Shown here: in pieces, positions 1,912-41,791 of the stretch
Layout of the letters: each line of letters opens with the position of its first letter
How positions within the stretch are numbered: position 1 is the first letter of the stretch
Virus record (IMG/VR): IMGVR_UViG_3300049893_000862
Coordinates: 1-42,364 of that record
Source: a virus
DNA: 42,364 bases
Strand: one strand, 5' to 3'
The notes under the pieces: model-generated
Told to the model about the DNA's origin: nothing
Database searches by the model: none
What the model saw: only the letters and a program-made list of their open reading frames with translations
Made by a program: the position numbers and the translations under genes

Positions 1912-3045
1912 ATGTTAAAAGTAGATTCAGAATTTAAGGCGTTGATACCACCGTTATCGAAGCAAGAGTTAAAAGAGTTAGAAAAACTATTACTTGAGGA
2001 AGGCATTAAATCTCCAATAGTGATATGGAATGATTTAATCATTGATGGACATAATCGTTATAGTATTGCACAAAAACATGGATTGAAATTTAAAACAGAA
2101 AAGAAATTGTTTAATACAAGAGATGAAGTAAAACAATGGATGATTAAAACTCAATTGGGGCGTAGAAATTTAACTCCTGAAAAATTCAAATATATGATTG
2201 GAAAGCTTTACAAGGAAAATAAAAATACACATGGAGGAGATAGAAAATCAAGTGATCAAAATGATCATTTGAAAAACACGGCTGAAATAATAGCAGATGA
2301 GTATAAAGTGTCTACACCCACTGTTCGTAGGGCAGAAGAATTTGCAGACGCAATTGATTCTATAAGAGAAAATTGCGGGGAAGATATCGCCGAAGATATT
2401 TTAAATGGGGAGATAGATTTAACACAAAAAGAAATAATCAAGATAGGCAATATTAAAGATTCTAGTGAACAAAATAAAGTGATTGAAAGTTTAAAAGAAA
2501 AAGATGGAGAAACTTTTAGGGTTGAATTGGCTAAAACAGACAATGTTATTGAAAAAATTCCACATGTTAGCTTTAATTCTGGCGATAATGAGTGGTATAC
2601 TCCTGCTGATATTATAGATGCCGCAAGGGCCGTTATGGGCAGCATAGACTTAGATCCGGCAAGCAATGATATGGCAAATAAAGTTGTGAGAGCTACTAAG
2701 TATTACACGGCAGAAACAAACGGATTAAATAAAGAATGGACTGGTAATGTGTGGTTAAATCCACCTTATGCGGGAGAATTAATCGGATTATTTTGTGACA
2801 AATTAGTTGAAAGCAATATAACCCAAGCTATTATGCTGGTGAACAATGCAACTGAAACAAATTGGTTTAATACTCTTATACATAAGGCTTCTGCGATTGT
2901 ATTCCCGAAAGGTAGGGTTAAATTTTACATGCCAGACGGTAAAACTGGCGCACCATTACAAGGACAGGCGATAATTTATTTTGGTGATAATCCAACTAAA
3001 TTTTTATTGGTATTTAAACAATTTGGGTGGGGTGCATGTCTATGA
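1912..3045 (+). CDS. ParB-like domain fused to DNA N6-adenine methyltransferase (Dam phage type)
   Basis: 377 residues. The N-terminal part (about 1-100) is a ParB/sulfiredoxin-fold domain with the signature IIDGHNRYS. A helical linker with a possible HTH (EIIADEYKVSTPTVRRAEEF) follows. The C-terminal part from about residue 225 is a phage Dam-type adenine methyltransferase, with W228-Y-T-P, D246-L-D-P-A-S and the catalytic N283-P-P-Y tetrad. Such enzymes methylate adenine in DNA and usually act as orphan methylases. Here the gene overlaps a small nuclease-like gene at its 3' end, suggesting a working pair. It separates terS from terL. A similar fusion with another nuclease-like partner lies at 27892. 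Confidence 0.85.
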   Translation: MLKVDSEFKALIPPLSKQELKELEKLLLEEGIKSPIVIWNDLIIDGHNRYSIAQKHGLKFKTEKKLFNTRDEVKQWMIKTQLGRRNLTPEKFKYMIGKLYKENKNTHGGDRKSSDQNDHLKNTAEIIADEYKVSTPTVRRAEEFADAIDSIRENCGEDIAEDILNGEIDLTQKEIIKIGNIKDSSEQNKVIESLKEKDGETFRVELAKTDNVIEKIPHVSFNSGDNEWYTPADIIDAARAVMGSIDLDPASNDMANKVVRATKYYTAETNGLNKEWTGNVWLNPPYAGELIGLFCDKLVESNITQAIMLVNNATETNWFNTLIHKASAIVFPKGRVKFYMPDGKTGAPLQGQAIIYFGDNPTKFLLVFKQFGWGACL

Positions 3046-3443
3046 GTGATAGAGGTGTAATCCAGTATCCAGCAAGAAAGCAACAGATTAATGATTTTAG
3101 TAAATTATTGGTGGGTAAAATTACTCCAACCGATATAGATGGATTAATTGAGTACAAAAATAAAGCTTACATATTTCTTGAAGTAAAATATAAAAACGTA
3201 AAGTTACCAGATGGACAAAAGTTAGCACTTGAAAGATTGTGTGATGATTTATTTAAAGTACAAAAACTTGCGGTTCTATTAGTCGTTGAACATAATGTAG
3301 ATGACACAAAAGAAAGCGTAAATGTAGGAGAGTGTTTTGTGCGAGAATGTTATTTTAACAAAAAGTGGACAGAACCAAATAAATTAACGGTTGTTAGTGC
3401 TATTACTCAGTTGATAAAAATGTCTGAAGAAATTTTTGCGTGA
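3042..3443 (+). CDS. Putative PD-(D/E)XK-type nuclease paired with the methyltransferase
   Basis: 133 residues. Start ATG 3042 follows GGTGGGG with good spacing; in-frame GTG 3027 and ATG 3036 are alternatives. The pattern TDIDGLIEY (D33) followed by IFLEVKYKN (E47-x-K49) is the D...ExK layout of PD-(D/E)XK nucleases. A helix with QKLALERLCDDL and a strand LAVLLVVEH follow, as expected for this fold. It overlaps the methyltransferase gene by 4 bp if read from 3042, so the two are translationally coupled. The protein lacks an obvious DNA-recognition domain, which the ParB/methylase partner might supply. Catalytic activity is inferred from motif only. Confidence 0.6.
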   Translation: MSDRGVIQYPARKQQINDFSKLLVGKITPTDIDGLIEYKNKAYIFLEVKYKNVKLPDGQKLALERLCDDLFKVQKLAVLLVVEHNVDDTKESVNVGECFVRECYFNKKWTEPNKLTVVSAITQLIKMSEEIFA

Positions 3444-3451
3444 GGTCGCCT

Positions 3452-3646
3452 ATGAAAAGAGTCCTAATAAAGCCGAAACATAATCACAATTGGACATATA
3501 ACATAATTATTGACGATGGTAAGCCATACGGTAAGTACATAGTGATTCGGAAAGGGACTTTGATAGAAGAATGTGAAGAATGTGAGACGGAAAATATATA
3601 TTTTTGTTTAGGCGGTTTGGTATTTAAGGACGGTGGGGCGGCGTGA
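3452..3646 (+). CDS. Small hypothetical protein
   Basis: 64 residues from ATG 3452, which has GAGG 6 bases upstream. A GTG at 3440 overlapping the previous stop is an alternative start. The product has a basic N-terminus (KRVLIKPKHNHNW), a central acidic CEECE segment with cysteines, and a short hydrophobic end. The C-E-E-C pattern could bind metal, but only one CxxC is present. The gene ends in a GTGA overlap with the large terminase start, so it is in the same translational unit. No family recognised. Confidence 0.6.
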   Translation: MKRVLIKPKHNHNWTYNIIIDDGKPYGKYIVIRKGTLIEECEECETENIYFCLGGLVFKDGGAA

Positions 3647-5259
3647 TAGATGAAAAAAGTTATGAGATAGCAATGGCGATTGAAAAGCAGTTACCGCATT
3701 TGAAGGGTAAGCAAAAGGCGCAAGCCGTAAAATTTTTAACGGAAATGAGAAATCAAGTTAAGGAAAGAAATGTCGAGATGATGAAGTCTGACATTTTTTA
3801 TTTTATTGAGAACTTTGTTCATATAGAGGACAGGGACTCGGTGGAATTGGCAACATTATTCAAATTGTGGGATGGACAGAAAAAAGCGTTAAATGACTTT
3901 ATAAATCACCGTTTAAATATTGTTCTAAAGGCTAGACAGTTGGGCTTAACGTGGCTTGCATTGGCCTATGTGGTACATAATTTACTTTTTAATAACGGTT
4001 TTCAAGTCGTGGCGTTGTCACGTACCGAGGACGAATCCAAAGAATTGGTACGGCGAATATTATTCATTTTAAGATATTTGCCTGTATGGTTGGTTAGGGA
4101 AGATACCAAAGAAAATTTAAGCTTTGCCGGTATGAAGTTTGACTCAACAACAATGTCGGTTACAATTATCCATCCGGGGAAAGAAGCCAGTTTATTTAAA
4201 AGTATGCCAGCTTCTCAGGATGCCGGGCGTTCGTTTACTGCAAATTTAGTTTTATTGGATGAGTGGGCTTTCCAGCAATGGGCAAGGGAGATTTGGGCAT
4301 CTGCATACCCGACAATTAATAGGCCCACTGGCGGTAAAGTTATAGGACTTAGTACGGCAAAAAGAATGACGCTATTTGAAGATATTTGGAAAAAATCGGT
4401 AGCAAAACGAAACACTTTTAATAGGATTTTTCTTTCCTGGAGGACAGATCCCCGGAGAACCGAAGAATGGTATGAGCAATCCAAGAAGGATTTGGGAGAT
4501 TTAGTAATAAAACAGGAGTACCCGAACACACCGGAAGAAGCGTTTGAAGCTGCGGAAGGTACGGCGTTTCCTGAATTTAGTTATGATATTCATGTTTGCC
4601 AGCCTTTCGACATTCCTAATCATTGGCAAAAGTGGCGAAGCGTTGATAATGGCTACACAGATCCTTTTGTATGGTACTGGTTTGCAGTTAATGAAGCTGG
4701 TACTGTTTTTATTTATAGGGAATATACCAGGGACGAAAAAGATCCGAAGGTTACATATACGGATCAGGCCAAAAGGGTAATTGAATTGACAAAAGAAAAG
4801 GACGTGTGGCAAACGGTAGCCGGATTGGACGCATGGAATAAGCATCATAGAGACACTTCTAATAAAAGTTTGATTGATTATTACCGGGATGGCGGCGTTT
4901 CTGGATTTGTAAAAGCTGTTACCGACAGGAAAATGAGGAAATCAGCTTTTCACGAATACTTGAAGCCATATTTTGACGAAAACATTCAGAAATGGACAGC
5001 AAAATTACAAATATTTGATACGTGTACCCGGCTTATTGAATATTTACCGCAGTATTTAGTTGACGAAAAAGACTGTGAAAAGGTTGCTGAGTGTGGATTT
5101 GACCATACTTTCGACAGCGCAGGATATGGGATTATTTACCATCATGCAAATAATAGCTTGCCAGTTGAGGTCCCGGATTCTTTTAATTTTGAATTTGAAA
5201 AACCGAAACCGGATGTTATGGCTGGGGGTGATCTTGATTGGAGCTATATAAATTACTGA
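3643..5259 (+). CDS. terL: Terminase large subunit (ATPase/nuclease)
   Basis: 538 residues, GTG start overlapping the previous stop (GTGA). This motor translocates DNA through the portal and cuts it. The N-terminal ATPase has the terminase-style Walker A at 96-104 (KARQLGLTW), Walker B at about 202-208 (VLLDEWA, D206/E207) and the coupling motif GLSTAK at 235-240. The C-terminal RNase H-like nuclease has acidic residues at D335 (DNGYTDP), D396 (AGLDAW) and D487/D491 (FDHTFDSAGYG). Length is normal. Its separation from terS by a methylase/nuclease block is unusual. Confidence 0.93.
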   Translation: MIDEKSYEIAMAIEKQLPHLKGKQKAQAVKFLTEMRNQVKERNVEMMKSDIFYFIENFVHIEDRDSVELATLFKLWDGQKKALNDFINHRLNIVLKARQLGLTWLALAYVVHNLLFNNGFQVVALSRTEDESKELVRRILFILRYLPVWLVREDTKENLSFAGMKFDSTTMSVTIIHPGKEASLFKSMPASQDAGRSFTANLVLLDEWAFQQWAREIWASAYPTINRPTGGKVIGLSTAKRMTLFEDIWKKSVAKRNTFNRIFLSWRTDPRRTEEWYEQSKKDLGDLVIKQEYPNTPEEAFEAAEGTAFPEFSYDIHVCQPFDIPNHWQKWRSVDNGYTDPFVWYWFAVNEAGTVFIYREYTRDEKDPKVTYTDQAKRVIELTKEKDVWQTVAGLDAWNKHHRDTSNKSLIDYYRDGGVSGFVKAVTDRKMRKSAFHEYLKPYFDENIQKWTAKLQIFDTCTRLIEYLPQYLVDEKDCEKVAECGFDHTFDSAGYGIIYHHANNSLPVEVPDSFNFEFEKPKPDVMAGGDLDWSYINY

Positions 5260-5741
5260 CATTTTTATTAATTTTTATTATTTTATTTTCCAATATTAGT
5301 TACGGCGTGGAATATTTGGTACTAGATGCGGATGGAAACTATGCAGTTTTAAAAGATCACTATGTACCTACTGATGAAGAAGAAAAAGCGGTTAATGATA
5401 TTGTTGCTGCCTGGTGTAAACGAAATAATTCATCTGATGATCTGCAAATGTATTACCGGATTAGAAACTACATAGCCCGAAAAGTAACCTATGACAACGA
5501 TAAAAAGTATAGTTATTCGGCTTATGGTGCGCTTATAAGGGGTCGAGCCGTATGTATGGGATATGCTTTGCTTGCTAAAAAGTTTTTTGATTATAAGAAA
5601 ATGGAAAATTATTTGATTTGGGATTTAAAAGAAAATCATTTATACAATCGGATCTTACTGAATGGTAAGTGGGAAGATGTGGACATTACCTGGTATGATT
5701 ACGGGCTTGAAAAATTGGAAAGGTGGTATGCCGGAAGATGA
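5238..5741 (+). CDS. Secreted transglutaminase-like (cysteine protease fold) protein
   Basis: 167 residues with a TTG start overlapping the end of terL and preceded by GGGGGTGA. Residues 1-23 form a signal peptide or N-terminal anchor, with a likely cut after ISYG. The rest resembles the transglutaminase-like core: C106 in RAVCMGYALL, H134 in ENHLYNRILLNGKWEDVD, and D149 in DVDITWYD, the Cys-His-Asp order of that superfamily. Bacterial relatives cleave or crosslink proteins or act at the cell surface. Finding one between terminase and portal is odd. It may modify the envelope or a virion protein. The start codon is the weakest part of the call. Confidence 0.6.
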   Translation: MELYKLLTFLLIFIILFSNISYGVEYLVLDADGNYAVLKDHYVPTDEEEKAVNDIVAAWCKRNNSSDDLQMYYRIRNYIARKVTYDNDKKYSYSAYGALIRGRAVCMGYALLAKKFFDYKKMENYLIWDLKENHLYNRILLNGKWEDVDITWYDYGLEKLERWYAGR

Positions 5742-27603: not shown

Positions 27604-27891
27604 TTCACAAGACAGATTGTAATGTATTTCCAAAGTAGAAGCAATATAAAGTTTTAACAAATATTTCATTTCTTTTAGGGTAGTAAATCAGCAAATTGCA
27701 CAATTGAATAAGATCGGAAAATAAAGCAATGCAGTTCTTTGACAAATACTAACGTGCACTAAAACATTACAGGAACCACTTCAACAGTTATATGACAGCC
27801 AGCTTATACGACGAACCTACTAGAGGGGCGTATGCCACAAAAAGAGCGTATAGAAGCTGTAATTGCTTTATTACATCACAGGAGGGATTTT
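27604..27891. other. Early-region leader without clear gene
   Basis: 288 bp of AT-rich sequence between the Cro-like gene and the second ParB-methyltransferase. Possible promoter cores (TTGCAC and TTGACA followed by weak -10 boxes) are seen near 27700-27770, but none is convincing. An in-frame ATG 27832 extends the next gene by 20 residues but the AGGAGGG at about 27879 supports ATG 27892. Confidence 0.4.
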
Positions 27892-29151
27892 ATGAAAATT
27901 AAAGTCAGCGATATAGTATTTCGCGAAGATTTATATCCAAGAATAACACCTGATGCGACATTAATTCAGAAATATGCAGAAAATATAGAAGTATTGCCAC
28001 CGATTGAAATTAATCAACACAACATTTTAATTGACGGATACCATAGGTGGACAGCACACAAAAAAGCCGAAGTTGAAGAAGTTGATGCTTTGATTATACA
28101 AACGAAGTCCGAAGCTGAGTTGTTTGCTATGGCTATTGAAAAAAATAGCAAACACGGTCAGCAGATGAACGAAAAGGACAAAAAGAAATCTGCTATTAGG
28201 CTTTATGGTGCAGGAACCGGAATTGAGAAAGATGAAATCGCAAAAATATTGTCCGTAAGCAAAAGAACGATAAGCGGCTATTTGACGGACATAGACAAGC
28301 AGATACGAGAAGAACGGAAAGAAAAAGTGTTTGATATGTATATGCGGTGCTATTCGATGGAAGAAATTGCAGCAGAAATGAAAGTTACAAAAGAAACAAT
28401 TTCTAAAGATGTTTGTCAGATTTCAGAAGATGTTCTTAAAACTGACAAAGTTATTGCCGAATATCTCGACCAAGATTTTATACCGCCGCTTTATAATATA
28501 TGGAACTTTGCTAGATGTTCGAACAACGTTGAGCATTTTGGACAAACTGAAGTAAGGATCGTTGACAATTTAATTTACCTATACACAAATCCTTTTGATA
28601 TTGTTCTTGATGTGTTTGCAGGCGGTGGAAGTACGATTGATATTTGTAAAAAGCGTTTAAGGCGATATTACGTTTCTGACCGAAAGCCAATTCCAGAGAG
28701 AGAGAAGGAAATAAGAAAACTGGACGTTTGCGAATCATTACCAGAACTAAACAAAAGATGGTCTGATGTTACTCTTACATATTTAGACCCGCCATACTGG
28801 AAACAGGCTGAAAATCAATATAGCACTGACAAAGAAGATTTAGCAAACATGTCATTAGATGAGTTTACCAATAAAATATGTGGAGTAGTAAATCGCATAG
28901 CAGAAAAACAAAGCAAAGGTGTAATCGCACTGATAATACAACCAACGCAATGGAAATCAGAAAATAAACAATTCACAGACCATGTTTTTGACATTATTAA
29001 AGGTGTAAAAAACAAAAACCTAGCTTTGGAGAGTCGTGTATCATGTCCATATTCAACACAACAATGCACGCCACAACAAGTAAATTGGGCGAAAGAAAAT
29101 AAAAAACTTCTTGTATTGTCAAGAGAACTGATAATTTGGAGGTTTGTATGA
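27892..29151 (+). CDS. ParB-like domain fused to DNA methyltransferase (second copy)
   Basis: 419 residues from ATG 27892 (AGGAGGG upstream). The N-terminus (about 1-90) is a ParB/sulfiredoxin domain with LIDGYHRWTA. Two HTH-like segments follow (KDEIAKILSVSKRTISGYLT and EEIAAEMKVTKETISKDVC). The methyltransferase has SAM motif D240-V-F-A-G-G-G-S-T and catalytic D299-P-P-Y-W, in the order motif I before motif IV, so it is an alpha/gamma-type N6/N4 amino methyltransferase. Downstream the nuclease-like gene overlaps its end by 4 bp. It may mark phage DNA or regulate early genes. It is not a close copy of the enzyme at 1912; the methylase halves are different subclasses. Confidence 0.85.
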   Translation: MKIKVSDIVFREDLYPRITPDATLIQKYAENIEVLPPIEINQHNILIDGYHRWTAHKKAEVEEVDALIIQTKSEAELFAMAIEKNSKHGQQMNEKDKKKSAIRLYGAGTGIEKDEIAKILSVSKRTISGYLTDIDKQIREERKEKVFDMYMRCYSMEEIAAEMKVTKETISKDVCQISEDVLKTDKVIAEYLDQDFIPPLYNIWNFARCSNNVEHFGQTEVRIVDNLIYLYTNPFDIVLDVFAGGGSTIDICKKRLRRYYVSDRKPIPEREKEIRKLDVCESLPELNKRWSDVTLTYLDPPYWKQAENQYSTDKEDLANMSLDEFTNKICGVVNRIAEKQSKGVIALIIQPTQWKSENKQFTDHVFDIIKGVKNKNLALESRVSCPYSTQQCTPQQVNWAKENKKLLVLSRELIIWRFV

Positions 29152-29615
29152 GTCAAGTAAAAATTAGATATGACGGCAAAGGTTCTGAGTTTGGTGATAT
29201 GCACAGAAAATTACCGTCTTATTGCGGAATGTTCGATATTGATAGAATGTCTGCTGTCGCCACAATTCACCTAGAACTTAAAAATCAAGACGTAGGATTT
29301 ATTGAATACCGTACAAACTTTGAAGATAATAGCATAAAATTTGTTGCGATGTTTGAGGTTAAATACAAAGACAGTGAACATGTCCAAAAAGCAATGCAAG
29401 TCAAAACTGGCACATCTGTTTTTGCACAAGTGAAAATGGCAGAAACGCTAAATTGTCGTTACTTTATGGTTATTGCAACAGAAGGCAAGAATCCATTTAC
29501 ATTCTACGAACACTTAAAAGATGAAGGATTTAAAGAAATTGGAATCCTTGATTATGATAACAATAACAAAGAGTTTATGGTTAGAAGATTTTGGAATGAA
29601 ATAAATTTATTATAA
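29148..29615 (+). CDS. Putative PD-(D/E)XK-type nuclease paired with the second methyltransferase
   Basis: 155 residues, ATG 29148 with GGAGG at 29139-29143; start overlaps the methylase stop by 4 bp. It resembles the protein at 3042: FDIDRMSAV (D32), then a longer insertion, then AMFEVKYKDSE (E70-x-K72), then a Q/M-rich helix FAQVKMAETLNC and strand YFMVIATEGK. The D...ExK layout and the same partner type argue for a nuclease-like role. The catalytic proof is missing, and D32 to E70 spacing is long. Confidence 0.5.
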   Translation: MSQVKIRYDGKGSEFGDMHRKLPSYCGMFDIDRMSAVATIHLELKNQDVGFIEYRTNFEDNSIKFVAMFEVKYKDSEHVQKAMQVKTGTSVFAQVKMAETLNCRYFMVIATEGKNPFTFYEHLKDEGFKEIGILDYDNNNKEFMVRRFWNEINLL

Positions 29616-33238: not shown

Positions 33239-33961
33239 ATGAACATTTACAAAAAATTAATTGAGGTACGAAAAAGTGTACCATATTTACAAAAAACCGC
33301 TACCGGGCCACAATTCAATTATGTGGGCAGCAGTCAAGTATTAGGTACTTTAAAGGCAAAAATGGATGAACTTAATTTATTATTAATCCCGAAAGTTATC
33401 GGACACACGCTGCACGAAAGCACCATTGAATTTATGGACGGAAACAAGCCAAAGCGCACCACAACATACTTTACCGAATTAGAGATGGAATATACGTGGC
33501 TAAACGCAGACAATCCCGAAGAAAAAATTGTTTGCACATGGTACGGACAAGGCGTAGACATAGCCGGTGAAAAAGGTGTCGGCAAAGCAATGACTTACGG
33601 TGAGAAGTATTTCATGCTAAAATTCTTTAATATTCCTACGGACAAGGACGACCCGGATTCATTCCAGGAGAAATTCGAGGACAAAACAATTTCAAAAAAC
33701 AACATAATCGAACTGCAAGAATTAGCTAAAAACGCTGATATAAGCGAACAGGACATGATTAAAGGCATAATGAAAAAATACCAAAAATCAAGCCTGAAAC
33801 AGCTTACCGTAAGCGAATACGAAACAATCAGAGAATCAATAAAGAAGAAAATTGACGTAAGTAACCCGGCGGTTGACGACAATCAAATTGACGAAGAACA
33901 GCGTAAACTTGACGAGATAATCGAAAGAAATAACCGAAAATGCGCAGAAATACTGGATTAA
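33239..33961 (+). CDS. erf: ERF-family single-strand annealing recombinase
   Basis: 240 residues, ATG 33239 after GGGAGG. The N-terminal MNIYKKLIEVRKSVPYLQK opening, the core GVGKAMTYGEKYFMLKFF and NIPTDKDDPDSF are classic ERF features. ERF proteins anneal ssDNA and recombine or circularise phage genomes. C-terminal residues 165-240 form a helical tail. With SSB and ERCC4-type nuclease it forms the recombination module. Confidence 0.88.
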   Translation: MNIYKKLIEVRKSVPYLQKTATGPQFNYVGSSQVLGTLKAKMDELNLLLIPKVIGHTLHESTIEFMDGNKPKRTTTYFTELEMEYTWLNADNPEEKIVCTWYGQGVDIAGEKGVGKAMTYGEKYFMLKFFNIPTDKDDPDSFQEKFEDKTISKNNIIELQELAKNADISEQDMIKGIMKKYQKSSLKQLTVSEYETIRESIKKKIDVSNPAVDDNQIDEEQRKLDEIIERNNRKCAEILD

Positions 33962-33984
33962 TCGTTTGTAAAGGAGGTGTAAAA

Positions 33985-34659
33985 ATGAACAAAGTTGTTG
34001 TTATTACTGGAGCAGCCGGAGGAATTGGACAGGCTATATGTAACGTTTTTGCAGATGATGTAGTATGCGCTTTAGATTCAAAGGCAGGAGCCGGACACCT
34101 TGTAGACATTACTTGTATCAGCGATGTTGAGTTGACGGTAAAAAACATAATCGACCTACACAGAAGGATTGATGTTCTTGTAAATTGCGCCGGAATTACC
34201 AAAGATGGATATTTAACGAAACAAAGTTCTTTGGATTGGCACGAAGTCATAGACGTAAATCTTACTGGTAGCAGGAACATGATTAAAGCCGTTGTACCGC
34301 ATATGATGAAGCAGGAAAGCGGCAAAATAATAAATATATCAAGCGTTAATGCCAATGGATGCGCCGGGCAGACTAATTATTCGGCAAGTAAGGCAGCATT
34401 GGAAGGACTTACAAAAGCTTGTGCTTATGAATTTGCAAAATACAATATATTAGTAAATGCAGTTGCGCCAGGATATGTACGAACTGCCATGACAGAAAAA
34501 ATCAGGCCTGAAAAATTGAAAAATATTATTGACACAATACCGCTATGGAGAATGGCTGAACCGATTGAAATTGCTTATATGGTTGAGTTTCTAGCATCAA
34601 ACAAGGCAAACTATATTACCGGACAAGTTTTCGGAGTGAATGGAGGATTGCGGATATGA
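33985..34659 (+). CDS. Short-chain dehydrogenase/reductase (FabG-like)
   Basis: 224 residues, ATG 33985 with AAAGGAGG upstream. NAD(P)-binding TGAAGGIGQ at residues 8-16, VLVNCAGIT, catalytic S119 (NISSVNANG), Y132 and K136 (NYSASKAAL), and the C-terminal AEPIEIAYMVEFLASNKANYITGQ region are all intact, so it should be active. The closest-looking relatives are 3-oxoacyl-ACP reductases. A full SDR gene inside the replication block of a phage is unusual. It may be a metabolic moron. Confidence 0.85.
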   Translation: MNKVVVITGAAGGIGQAICNVFADDVVCALDSKAGAGHLVDITCISDVELTVKNIIDLHRRIDVLVNCAGITKDGYLTKQSSLDWHEVIDVNLTGSRNMIKAVVPHMMKQESGKIINISSVNANGCAGQTNYSASKAALEGLTKACAYEFAKYNILVNAVAPGYVRTAMTEKIRPEKLKNIIDTIPLWRMAEPIEIAYMVEFLASNKANYITGQVFGVNGGLRI

Positions 34660-41293: not shown

Positions 41294-41791
41294 TTATGCT
41301 TTTTCAATCCATCCAAACGAAGTAAATTCCCCTTCTGTTTCCATTGCTATATCACGTCCAAAAGCTTCATGGTCAATGTAATTTGCAAGGTTTCCCATAT
41401 TTTTTAAGTCATAACAACCTGATTCATATATCCAGTAATAGCCTAAATCTGATTTGTCTTTTATGTCTGTATGCAAATTGAAGTTGTCAAGGTTTTCAAT
41501 TGCTTCTTTGGTATCCGAATAATATCCCCACTCTAGGAGTGCTTTTAATTTTTCTTCTTCGTGACTATCAAGTGAGTCTAATTTTTCTGCCAGTTCGTTA
41601 AGTTCATACGGGTTATCGTATTCATCAATTTTCAAAAACTCGCACTCATAGTCATGGATTGCATATTCTTCGTCGTCTCCTAAAATTGCCTGTATTTGTT
41701 CTTCCAGATTGTCAGCCGGTAAACTGATCCATTCTCCTACTAATTCACCTTCATTGTATTTCGCCAAATTTGCCACATAAATATTCATCAT
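41294..41791 (-). CDS. ardA: Antirestriction protein ArdA
   Basis: 165 residues; GGAGGTGTCGAT upstream of ATG 41791. MMNIYVANLAKYNEGELVGEW, then LPADNLEEQIQAIL, EEYAIHDYECEF and a C-terminal acidic region (NLANYIDHEAFGRDIAMETE) are hallmark ArdA patterns. ArdA is an acidic DNA-mimic that blocks type I restriction enzymes, protecting entering DNA. It sits with an RHH regulator. Confidence 0.92.
   Translation of the reverse strand: MMNIYVANLAKYNEGELVGEWISLPADNLEEQIQAILGDDEEYAIHDYECEFLKIDEYDNPYELNELAEKLDSLDSHEEEKLKALLEWGYYSDTKEAIENLDNFNLHTDIKDKSDLGYYWIYESGCYDLKNMGNLANYIDHEAFGRDIAMETEGEFTSFGWIEKA

What the first reader, a model, noticed from the sequence alone, without database searches (positions are those of the whole stretch)
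27892..29615. Second, separate ParB-methyltransferase/nuclease-like pair
At a distant locus another ParB-methylase fusion (a different methylase subclass) is again overlapped by a gene with the same FDID...FEVKYKD layout as the first partner. Two independent copies of the same gene pair in one genome imply a functional two-gene system, not chance. This may be an undescribed phage defence or host-takeover module.
Basis: partly seen in the sequence, partly recalled or inferred. Interest (0 to 1): 0.8.

Follow-up and report, generated by a model that had tools for sequence, protein, structure and literature searches.

The report
Phage DNA-methylase gene coupled to nuclease-like gene
This phage carries, twice, a gene for a DNA-marking enzyme that runs directly into a gene for a small protein that looks like a DNA-cutting enzyme, and the same kind of pairing, with exchangeable cutters, recurs across many unrelated phages, which suggests a little-described way for phages to tell their own DNA from other DNA or to process it.

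Summary
The pair is real. 27892-29151 encodes a ParB-HTH-DNA methyltransferase (419 aa). A 155-aa ORF starts inside its stop codon (ATGA, 29148-29615). The window's other pair (ParB-Dam 1912-3045; partner 3042-3443, then terminase) has the same ATGA junction. They are not copies: the methylases are of unrelated classes, and the two small proteins share no detectable homology beyond a D...ExK motif.

The association is general. In IMG/VR and prophage loci, methylases of four classes, usually fused to ParB, are nearly always followed by an overlapping small PD-(D/E)XK-like gene. The strict motif occurs in 28 of 39 non-redundant partners against 43 of 176 other adjacent genes (p = 6e-8). Nuclease lineages are exchangeable: an 86%-identical methylase (L001) carries an unrelated partner, homology stopping exactly at the partner's start. 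Partner 1 folds like the Holliday-junction resolvase Hjc (Z 9.0). Partner 2's fold is unproven (pLDDT 43).

Some nuclease lineages occur alone, in contigs with no matching methylase, which argues against a classical restriction enzyme. Best reading: a modification-coupled nuclease module that processes or discriminates phage DNA, related to the ParB-Tls locus. No partner family exists in Pfam, PHROGs, NCBIfam or PADLOC; I found no paper describing the pairing. New variant of a known kind.

The parts
27892..29151 (+). ParB-HTH-DNA methyltransferase fusion, 419 aa: ParB-like domain about residues 1-105, HTH segments about 111-135 and 144-181, methylase about 193-419 with FAGGGS (242-247) before DPPYW (299-303)
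27880..27886 (+). AGGAGGG ribosome-binding site for the fusion gene
28786..28797 (+). catalytic DPPY motif of the methylase, conserved in relatives
29138..29142 (+). GGAGG ribosome-binding site for the partner
29148..29615 (+). partner 2 (type E), 155 aa: EFG..HR (E14), D30/D32, E70xK72, Q94; putative PD-(D/E)XK nuclease; ATGA overlap with the methylase stop
   Evidence: fold not proven
1912..3045 (+). pair 1 fusion: ParB-like plus Dam-type (PF05869) adenine methylase, 377 aa
3042..3443 (+). partner 1 (type P1), 133 aa: PTDIDG..LExK..GQ, Hjc-like PD-(D/E)XK fold; ATGA overlap
3643..5259 (+). terminase large subunit, one small gene after pair 1 (ParB-Tls arrangement); context

Best explanation
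The pair is a modification-coupled nuclease module of a temperate phage. The ParB-HTH part, probably NTP-dependent, places the methylase on DNA. The methylase marks phage DNA. The small translationally coupled PD-(D/E)XK nuclease, Hjc-like and too small for a large recognition domain of its own, cuts or nicks DNA according to structure and modification state, recruited or gated by the fusion protein. I think it most likely acts on the phage's own replicating, recombining or pre-packaging DNA: pair 1 lies beside the terminase, and pair 2 lies between the repressor/Cro genes and Erf, DnaD, DnaB and an ERCC4-type nuclease. Shown here: the gene pair, its recurrence, the exchange of nuclease lineages, conserved active-site-like residues and the Hjc-like model of partner 1. 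Inferred: nuclease activity, physical interaction, gating by methylation, and the substrate.
For: Pairing recurs far beyond chance and in four methylase classes: Dam, DPPYP beta, MT-A70-like DPPW, and order-swapped DPPYW. Both window pairs have ATGA coupling. Active-site-like residues are kept: type A E12, D42, E57, K59, Q69, each in at least 90% of 24 A/D sequences; P1 D31, D33, E47, K49, Q59; type E D30, D32, E70, K72, Q94 in both known members. Partner 1 model pLDDT 82; the twelve best PDB rows are Hjc-type resolvases, top Z 9.0, rmsd 2.8 over 100 residues, with VRR_NUC and RecU further down. Types A and P1 align over the D..ExK..Q core at 72%. A and B types also occur alone in replication/recombination regions beside RecT-like, VRR-NUC or DnaB genes, and solo A, B or P1 contigs lack a detected N6_N4 methylase in 17 of 18 and Dam in 18 of 18. 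The L016 phage likewise holds two different pairs. An out-of-sample Bacillota prophage, L190, shows the same pair. Literature: a ParB-SAM-dependent methyltransferase fusion binds ATP (PMC12704722), and a B. cereus ParB-methylase nicks DNA non-specifically (cited in PMC5512222).
Against: The fold of the window's own second partner is not established: two-sequence alignment, pLDDT 43, no fold match. No biochemical data exist for any member. ParB is not universal in the pairs (L005, L016 Dam, L080), so ParB guidance cannot be the whole story. Nuclease gating by methylation is purely inferred. Four loci show a divergent type without the strict motif, and type B has lost the ExK lysine, so activity may be lost in some.
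Confidence: 0.42

Rival explanations
1. A compact restriction-modification system carried by the phage: the methylase protects phage DNA and the small protein is a true restriction endonuclease for the same site, destroying unmodified host or competitor DNA.
For: Methylase plus PD-(D/E)XK gene, overlapping, with conserved methylase and hypervariable nuclease, is the classical R-M pattern. Some partners look like plain PD-(D/E)XK nucleases (L117, L160, L167, L176). Pair 2 lies in the early region.
Against: Type A and B nucleases occur without any detected N6_N4/Dam methylase, where an unpaired REase should be harmful. The same nuclease lineage serves different methylase classes, and an 86%-identical methylase has an unrelated nuclease. 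The nucleases have little room for a recognition domain.
Confidence: 0.3
2. Two independent tools in one transcript: an orphan anti-restriction methylase and an ordinary phage Holliday-junction resolvase or replication nuclease, with no shared mechanism.
For: Hjc-like fold of partner 1; solo occurrence of the nucleases beside recombination genes.
Against: Translational coupling to methylases of four classes. In 39 non-redundant partner slots I saw no RusA- or RuvC-type resolvase, as free exchange of resolvases would give (by eye). ParB-only genes are followed by other genes.
Confidence: 0.2
3. The small protein is a catalytically dead PD-(D/E)XK-fold subunit that helps the methylase bind DNA.
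For: Type B lacks the ExK lysine and four divergent partners lack the strict motif.
Against: Types A, P1, C, D and E keep D...(E/D)xK.
Confidence: 0.08

Closest known systems
ParB-Tls locus of phages (Iyer et al. 2013, as described in PMC6536676)
   Same: ParB-like domain, fused or next to a DNA methylase, upstream of the terminase large subunit: pair 1 fits.
   Different: Pair 2 lies in the early region, about 22.6 kb from the terminase. The description available to me mentions no linked PD-(D/E)XK gene; the 2013 paper itself was not held, so it may.
ParB-CTPase-fold fusions (Kaljevic et al. 2025, PMC12704722) and the B. cereus ParB-methylase (cited in PMC5512222)
   Same: Phage ParB fused to N6_N4 or MT-A70 methylases; NTP binding; nicking reported for one.
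   Different: That survey looked for neighbouring parA only; the passages I searched report no coupled nuclease gene.
Archaeal Holliday junction resolvase Hjc / VRR-NUC
   Same: Partner 1 fold: Z 9.0 to 1hh1, Z 6.3 to VRR_NUC 4qbn. Type A has the E-D-ExK-Q order.
   Different: No significant sequence match to any solved structure. Coupled to methylases. Fold of partner 2 unproven.
Type II restriction-modification systems
   Same: Conserved methylase plus variable adjacent nuclease-like gene.
   Different: Nucleases also occur without methylase; lineages are swapped between methylase classes; the ParB-HTH module.
Phage P1 methylation-regulated pac cleavage (from memory)
   Same: A precedent for a phage coupling its own adenine methylation to cutting its DNA.
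   Different: Different proteins; only an analogy.

Membership tests
Type II restriction-modification system | DNA methylase with intact motifs | tested here: met
   N6_N4_Mtase 1.5e-11; FAGGGS present, DPPYW conserved
Type II restriction-modification system | adjacent endonuclease with PD-(D/E)XK fold | tested here: inconclusive
   Motif D30/D32-E70-K72 conserved, SS order a-b-b-b-a-b, but pLDDT 43 and no fold match
Type II restriction-modification system | nuclease lineage always kept with a protecting methylase | tested here: not met
   Types A and B: 14 of 57 loci without an adjacent methylase; 17 of 18 contigs with solo A, B or P1 genes had no N6_N4 hit and 18 of 18 no Dam hit. Other methylase families not tested; contigs may be fragments; type E itself was seen only with methylase
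Type II restriction-modification system | methylase and nuclease recognise the same site | not testable with these tools
   needs methylome and cleavage assays
ParB-Tls locus | ParB-like domain plus DNA modification enzyme | tested here: met
   both pairs
ParB-Tls locus | placed directly upstream of the terminase large subunit | tested here: not met
   met for pair 1 (TerL 3643-5259), not for pair 2, the subject of this finding (27.9 kb; followed by Erf/DnaD/DnaB)
Hjc-like Holliday junction resolvase | Hjc fold with E, D, ExK | tested here: inconclusive
   partner 1: fold match Z 9.0, but without the N-terminal E clearly identified; partner 2: model too poor
Hjc-like Holliday junction resolvase | cleaves four-way junctions | not testable with these tools
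   needs enzyme assay
Known anti-phage defence system | PADLOC model for the pair | tested here: not met
   essentially only generic Type II/III/orphan methylase models for the fusions; no hit for partners
ParABS partition system | parA gene next to parB | tested here: not met
   the adjacent genes are the nuclease-like ORF and Cro/repressor-like genes; no ParA among the scanned neighbours

The most novel reading that the evidence does not exclude
Phages widely carry a modular 'mark-and-cut' unit in which a DNA methylase of any of at least four classes, usually guided by an NTP-binding ParB-HTH module, is translationally coupled to one of many exchangeable small PD-(D/E)XK nucleases; modification state and NTP state together decide where phage, host or rival DNA is cut.
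Probability: 0.35. Interest if true: 0.8.

Novelty: new variant of a known kind. Interest (0 to 1): 0.57.

Why it matters
Phage methylases are usually described as orphan and explained as protection from host restriction. If most ParB-methylases have an overlooked coupled nuclease, many of them are not orphan, and a recent open question (what phage ParB-methylase fusions do) becomes directly testable. An isolated example is available: Methanoculleus virus Blf4 carries a ParB-methylase (QXM18669) overlapped by a 189-aa hypothetical protein (QXM18670).

Tried and rejected
tblastn of partner 2 against 50,697 phage records and pattern scans of viral contigs found only L021; 398 Bacillota genomes gave none, so its lineage is rare and its alignment too shallow. 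AlphaFold on two sequences failed (pLDDT 43) and its Foldseek search was meaningless. No sequence relative of partner 1, partner 2 or type B in the PDB. Pfam, PHROGs, NCBIfam and PADLOC have no family for any partner type (partner 1 only VRR_NUC at E 0.063). Partner 2 versus type A: profile score 21.3-22.3; 3 of 400 neighbour proteins scored as high as the window protein, two of them PD-(D/E)XK-like proteins, which is suggestive only. Rejected: that the two window pairs are duplicates. The 2013 ParB-Tls paper was not held, so I cannot say whether it mentions a nuclease. Ten literature searches found no description of the pairing.

Full report
WHAT IS THERE. The window is a 42,364-base IMG/VR virus record of a temperate tailed phage: terminase, portal, tail and lysis genes on the left, a divergent repressor/Cro region near 26-27.6 kb, then replication and recombination genes (Erf, DnaD, DnaB, ERCC4-type nuclease). 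The finding lies just after the Cro-like gene. The fusion ORF 27892-29151 (419 aa) has a ParB-like N-terminus, two HTH segments and a methylase domain in which the SAM-binding FxGGGS precedes DPPYW. The next ORF starts with the ATG of an ATGA overlap at 29148 behind a GGAGG and encodes 155 residues. Pair 1 (ParB-Dam 1912-3045; partner 3042-3443) has the same ATGA junction and sits one small gene before the large terminase.

ARE THE TWO PAIRS ALIKE? Only in plan. The methylases belong to different classes and do not align. The two small proteins give BLASTP E = 0.053 with misaligned motifs and a profile-profile probability of 0.7% over 12 columns around ExKYK. So 'two copies of one pair' is wrong; 'two unrelated pairs built on one plan' is right.

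IS IT MORE THAN CHANCE? I collected relatives of the pair-2 methylase, of pair 1 and of two partner lineages. Next to the pair-2 methylase family there is nearly always a small overlapping gene, but of different lineages: A (STEFGLWLR...D...IEEKR...Q), D (related to A, 98%), B (YSxWHR...IDLD...LIETAxDxGQxxK), C (related to B, 94-95%), E (window and L021 only) and others. Relatives of the ParB domain behave in a striking way: ParB genes that also carry a methylase (Dam NPPY, beta DPPY, MT-A70-like DPPW, order-swapped DPPYW) are followed by a small PD-(D/E)XK-like gene, while ParB genes without methylase are followed by other genes. With a strict motif (D, 6-50 residues, two hydrophobics, [DE]xK) the count is 28 of 39 non-redundant partners against 43 of 176 other adjacent genes (Fisher p = 6e-8). 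The 11 partners that fail are seven of type B (ExK lysine lost; a conserved lysine lies further on) and four of one divergent type (L109, L116, L142, L149). The loci were drawn by ParB or methylase similarity, not by the partner. From the partner side, 30 of 43 type-A loci lie directly behind a methylase, six of the pair-2 family and 24 of a different DPPYP beta class, not all with a ParB motif. Type B lies behind or near one in 12 of 14. An out-of-sample Bacillota prophage (L190) shows the same arrangement (n = 1), as does the isolated archaeal virus Blf4, whose partner has DxE rather than ExK at that place and is less typical.

EXCHANGE. L001 carries a methylase 86% identical to the window's, but its partner is type A, not E; DNA similarity covers 27892-29147 only, stopping at the partner's start codon, with no meaningful similarity in the flanks held. 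On the methylase tree, types A and E are each split. L016's phage also holds two pairs, a Dam (no ParB) with a P1-type partner and a ParB-methylase with a type-A partner.

IS THE PARTNER A NUCLEASE? For partner 1, very probably. Its model has pLDDT 82 and the core order a-b-b-b-a-b. A structural second look ranks twelve Hjc-type Holliday-junction-resolvase entries first (Z 9.0, rmsd 2.8 over 100 residues), with BpuSI, VRR_NUC and RecU further down. Foldseek itself gave no E below 0.001, so this rests on the second look and the active-site pattern. Type A conserves E12, D42, E57, K59 and Q69, the order of Hjc's active site (Hjc residues from memory), and aligns with P1 at 72% over this core. 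For partner 2 it is likely but unproven: D30, D32, E70, K72 and Q94 are conserved in its one homologue at 49% identity, its N-terminal R.D..SEFG..HR resembles type A (5%; 3 of 400 background proteins score as high, two being PD-(D/E)XK-like), and the low-confidence model has the right order of elements, but no fold match.

MECHANISM. Translational coupling, recurrence with methylases of four classes and restriction of the slot to one fold argue for joint action. A classical restriction enzyme is less likely because type A and B genes also stand alone (14 of 57 loci without an adjacent methylase), and solo A, B or P1 contigs show no Dam in 18 of 18 and no N6_N4 methylase in 17 of 18, with the caveats that contigs may be fragments and other methylase families were not tested. 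The nucleases are small, with little room for a recognition domain. I therefore favour a modification-coupled nuclease whose placement comes from the ParB-HTH-methylase where ParB is present, acting on replicating, recombining or pre-packaging phage DNA (0.42), over compact R-M (0.30), two independent tools (0.20) and a dead subunit (0.08).

KNOWN OR NEW. Phage ParB-methylase fusions are known: a 2025 survey describes them and reports ATP binding for a ParB-methyltransferase fusion, with attention to parA neighbours only (PMC12704722). The ParB-Tls locus is known (PMC6536676), and non-specific nicking by a B. cereus ParB-methylase is cited in PMC5512222. The coupled, exchangeable PD-(D/E)XK partner has no family in Pfam, PHROGs, NCBIfam or PADLOC and I found no paper on it, but the library lacks most subscription papers and the 2013 ParB-Tls paper. 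Hence: new variant of a known kind.

Noticed in passing
window 41294-41791 (-): Protein similar to PHROG 2059 'anti-restriction protein' (E 3e-25): this phage carries two methylase-nuclease pairs and an anti-restriction gene.
   Followed up: no
window 33940-34659 (+): FabG-like short-chain reductase family protein (PHROG 3142, E 6e-53) inside the replication/recombination region; unusual cargo.
   Followed up: no
window 5238-5741 (+): Weak transglutaminase-like domain protein between terminase and portal genes.
   Followed up: no
L057-L059, L062, L064-L066, L068-L070, L082, L085: Type A nuclease-like gene without methylase in early regions, many beside RecT-like and VRR-NUC genes.
   Followed up: partly
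L109 (gene after the ParB-methylase), L116, L142, L149: A divergent partner type with the pattern D...GIAxRV...FTIRxKRxxGxxTExEK; may be a degenerate or altered PD-(D/E)XK.
   Followed up: no
L089-L102: Type B partners keep D39, D41 and E60 but lack the ExK lysine; a lysine lies about ten residues on (LIETAxDxGQxxK), perhaps a migrated catalytic lysine.
   Followed up: partly
L120, L155, L160, L167, L173, L176: MT-A70-like methylases (DPPW or the same C-terminal tail) fused to ParB in phages, each followed by a PD-(D/E)XK-like gene.
   Followed up: partly
L016:1660-2298: Long alanine/tryptophan/aspartate-rich repeat ORF between the two methylase-nuclease pairs of that phage.
   Followed up: no
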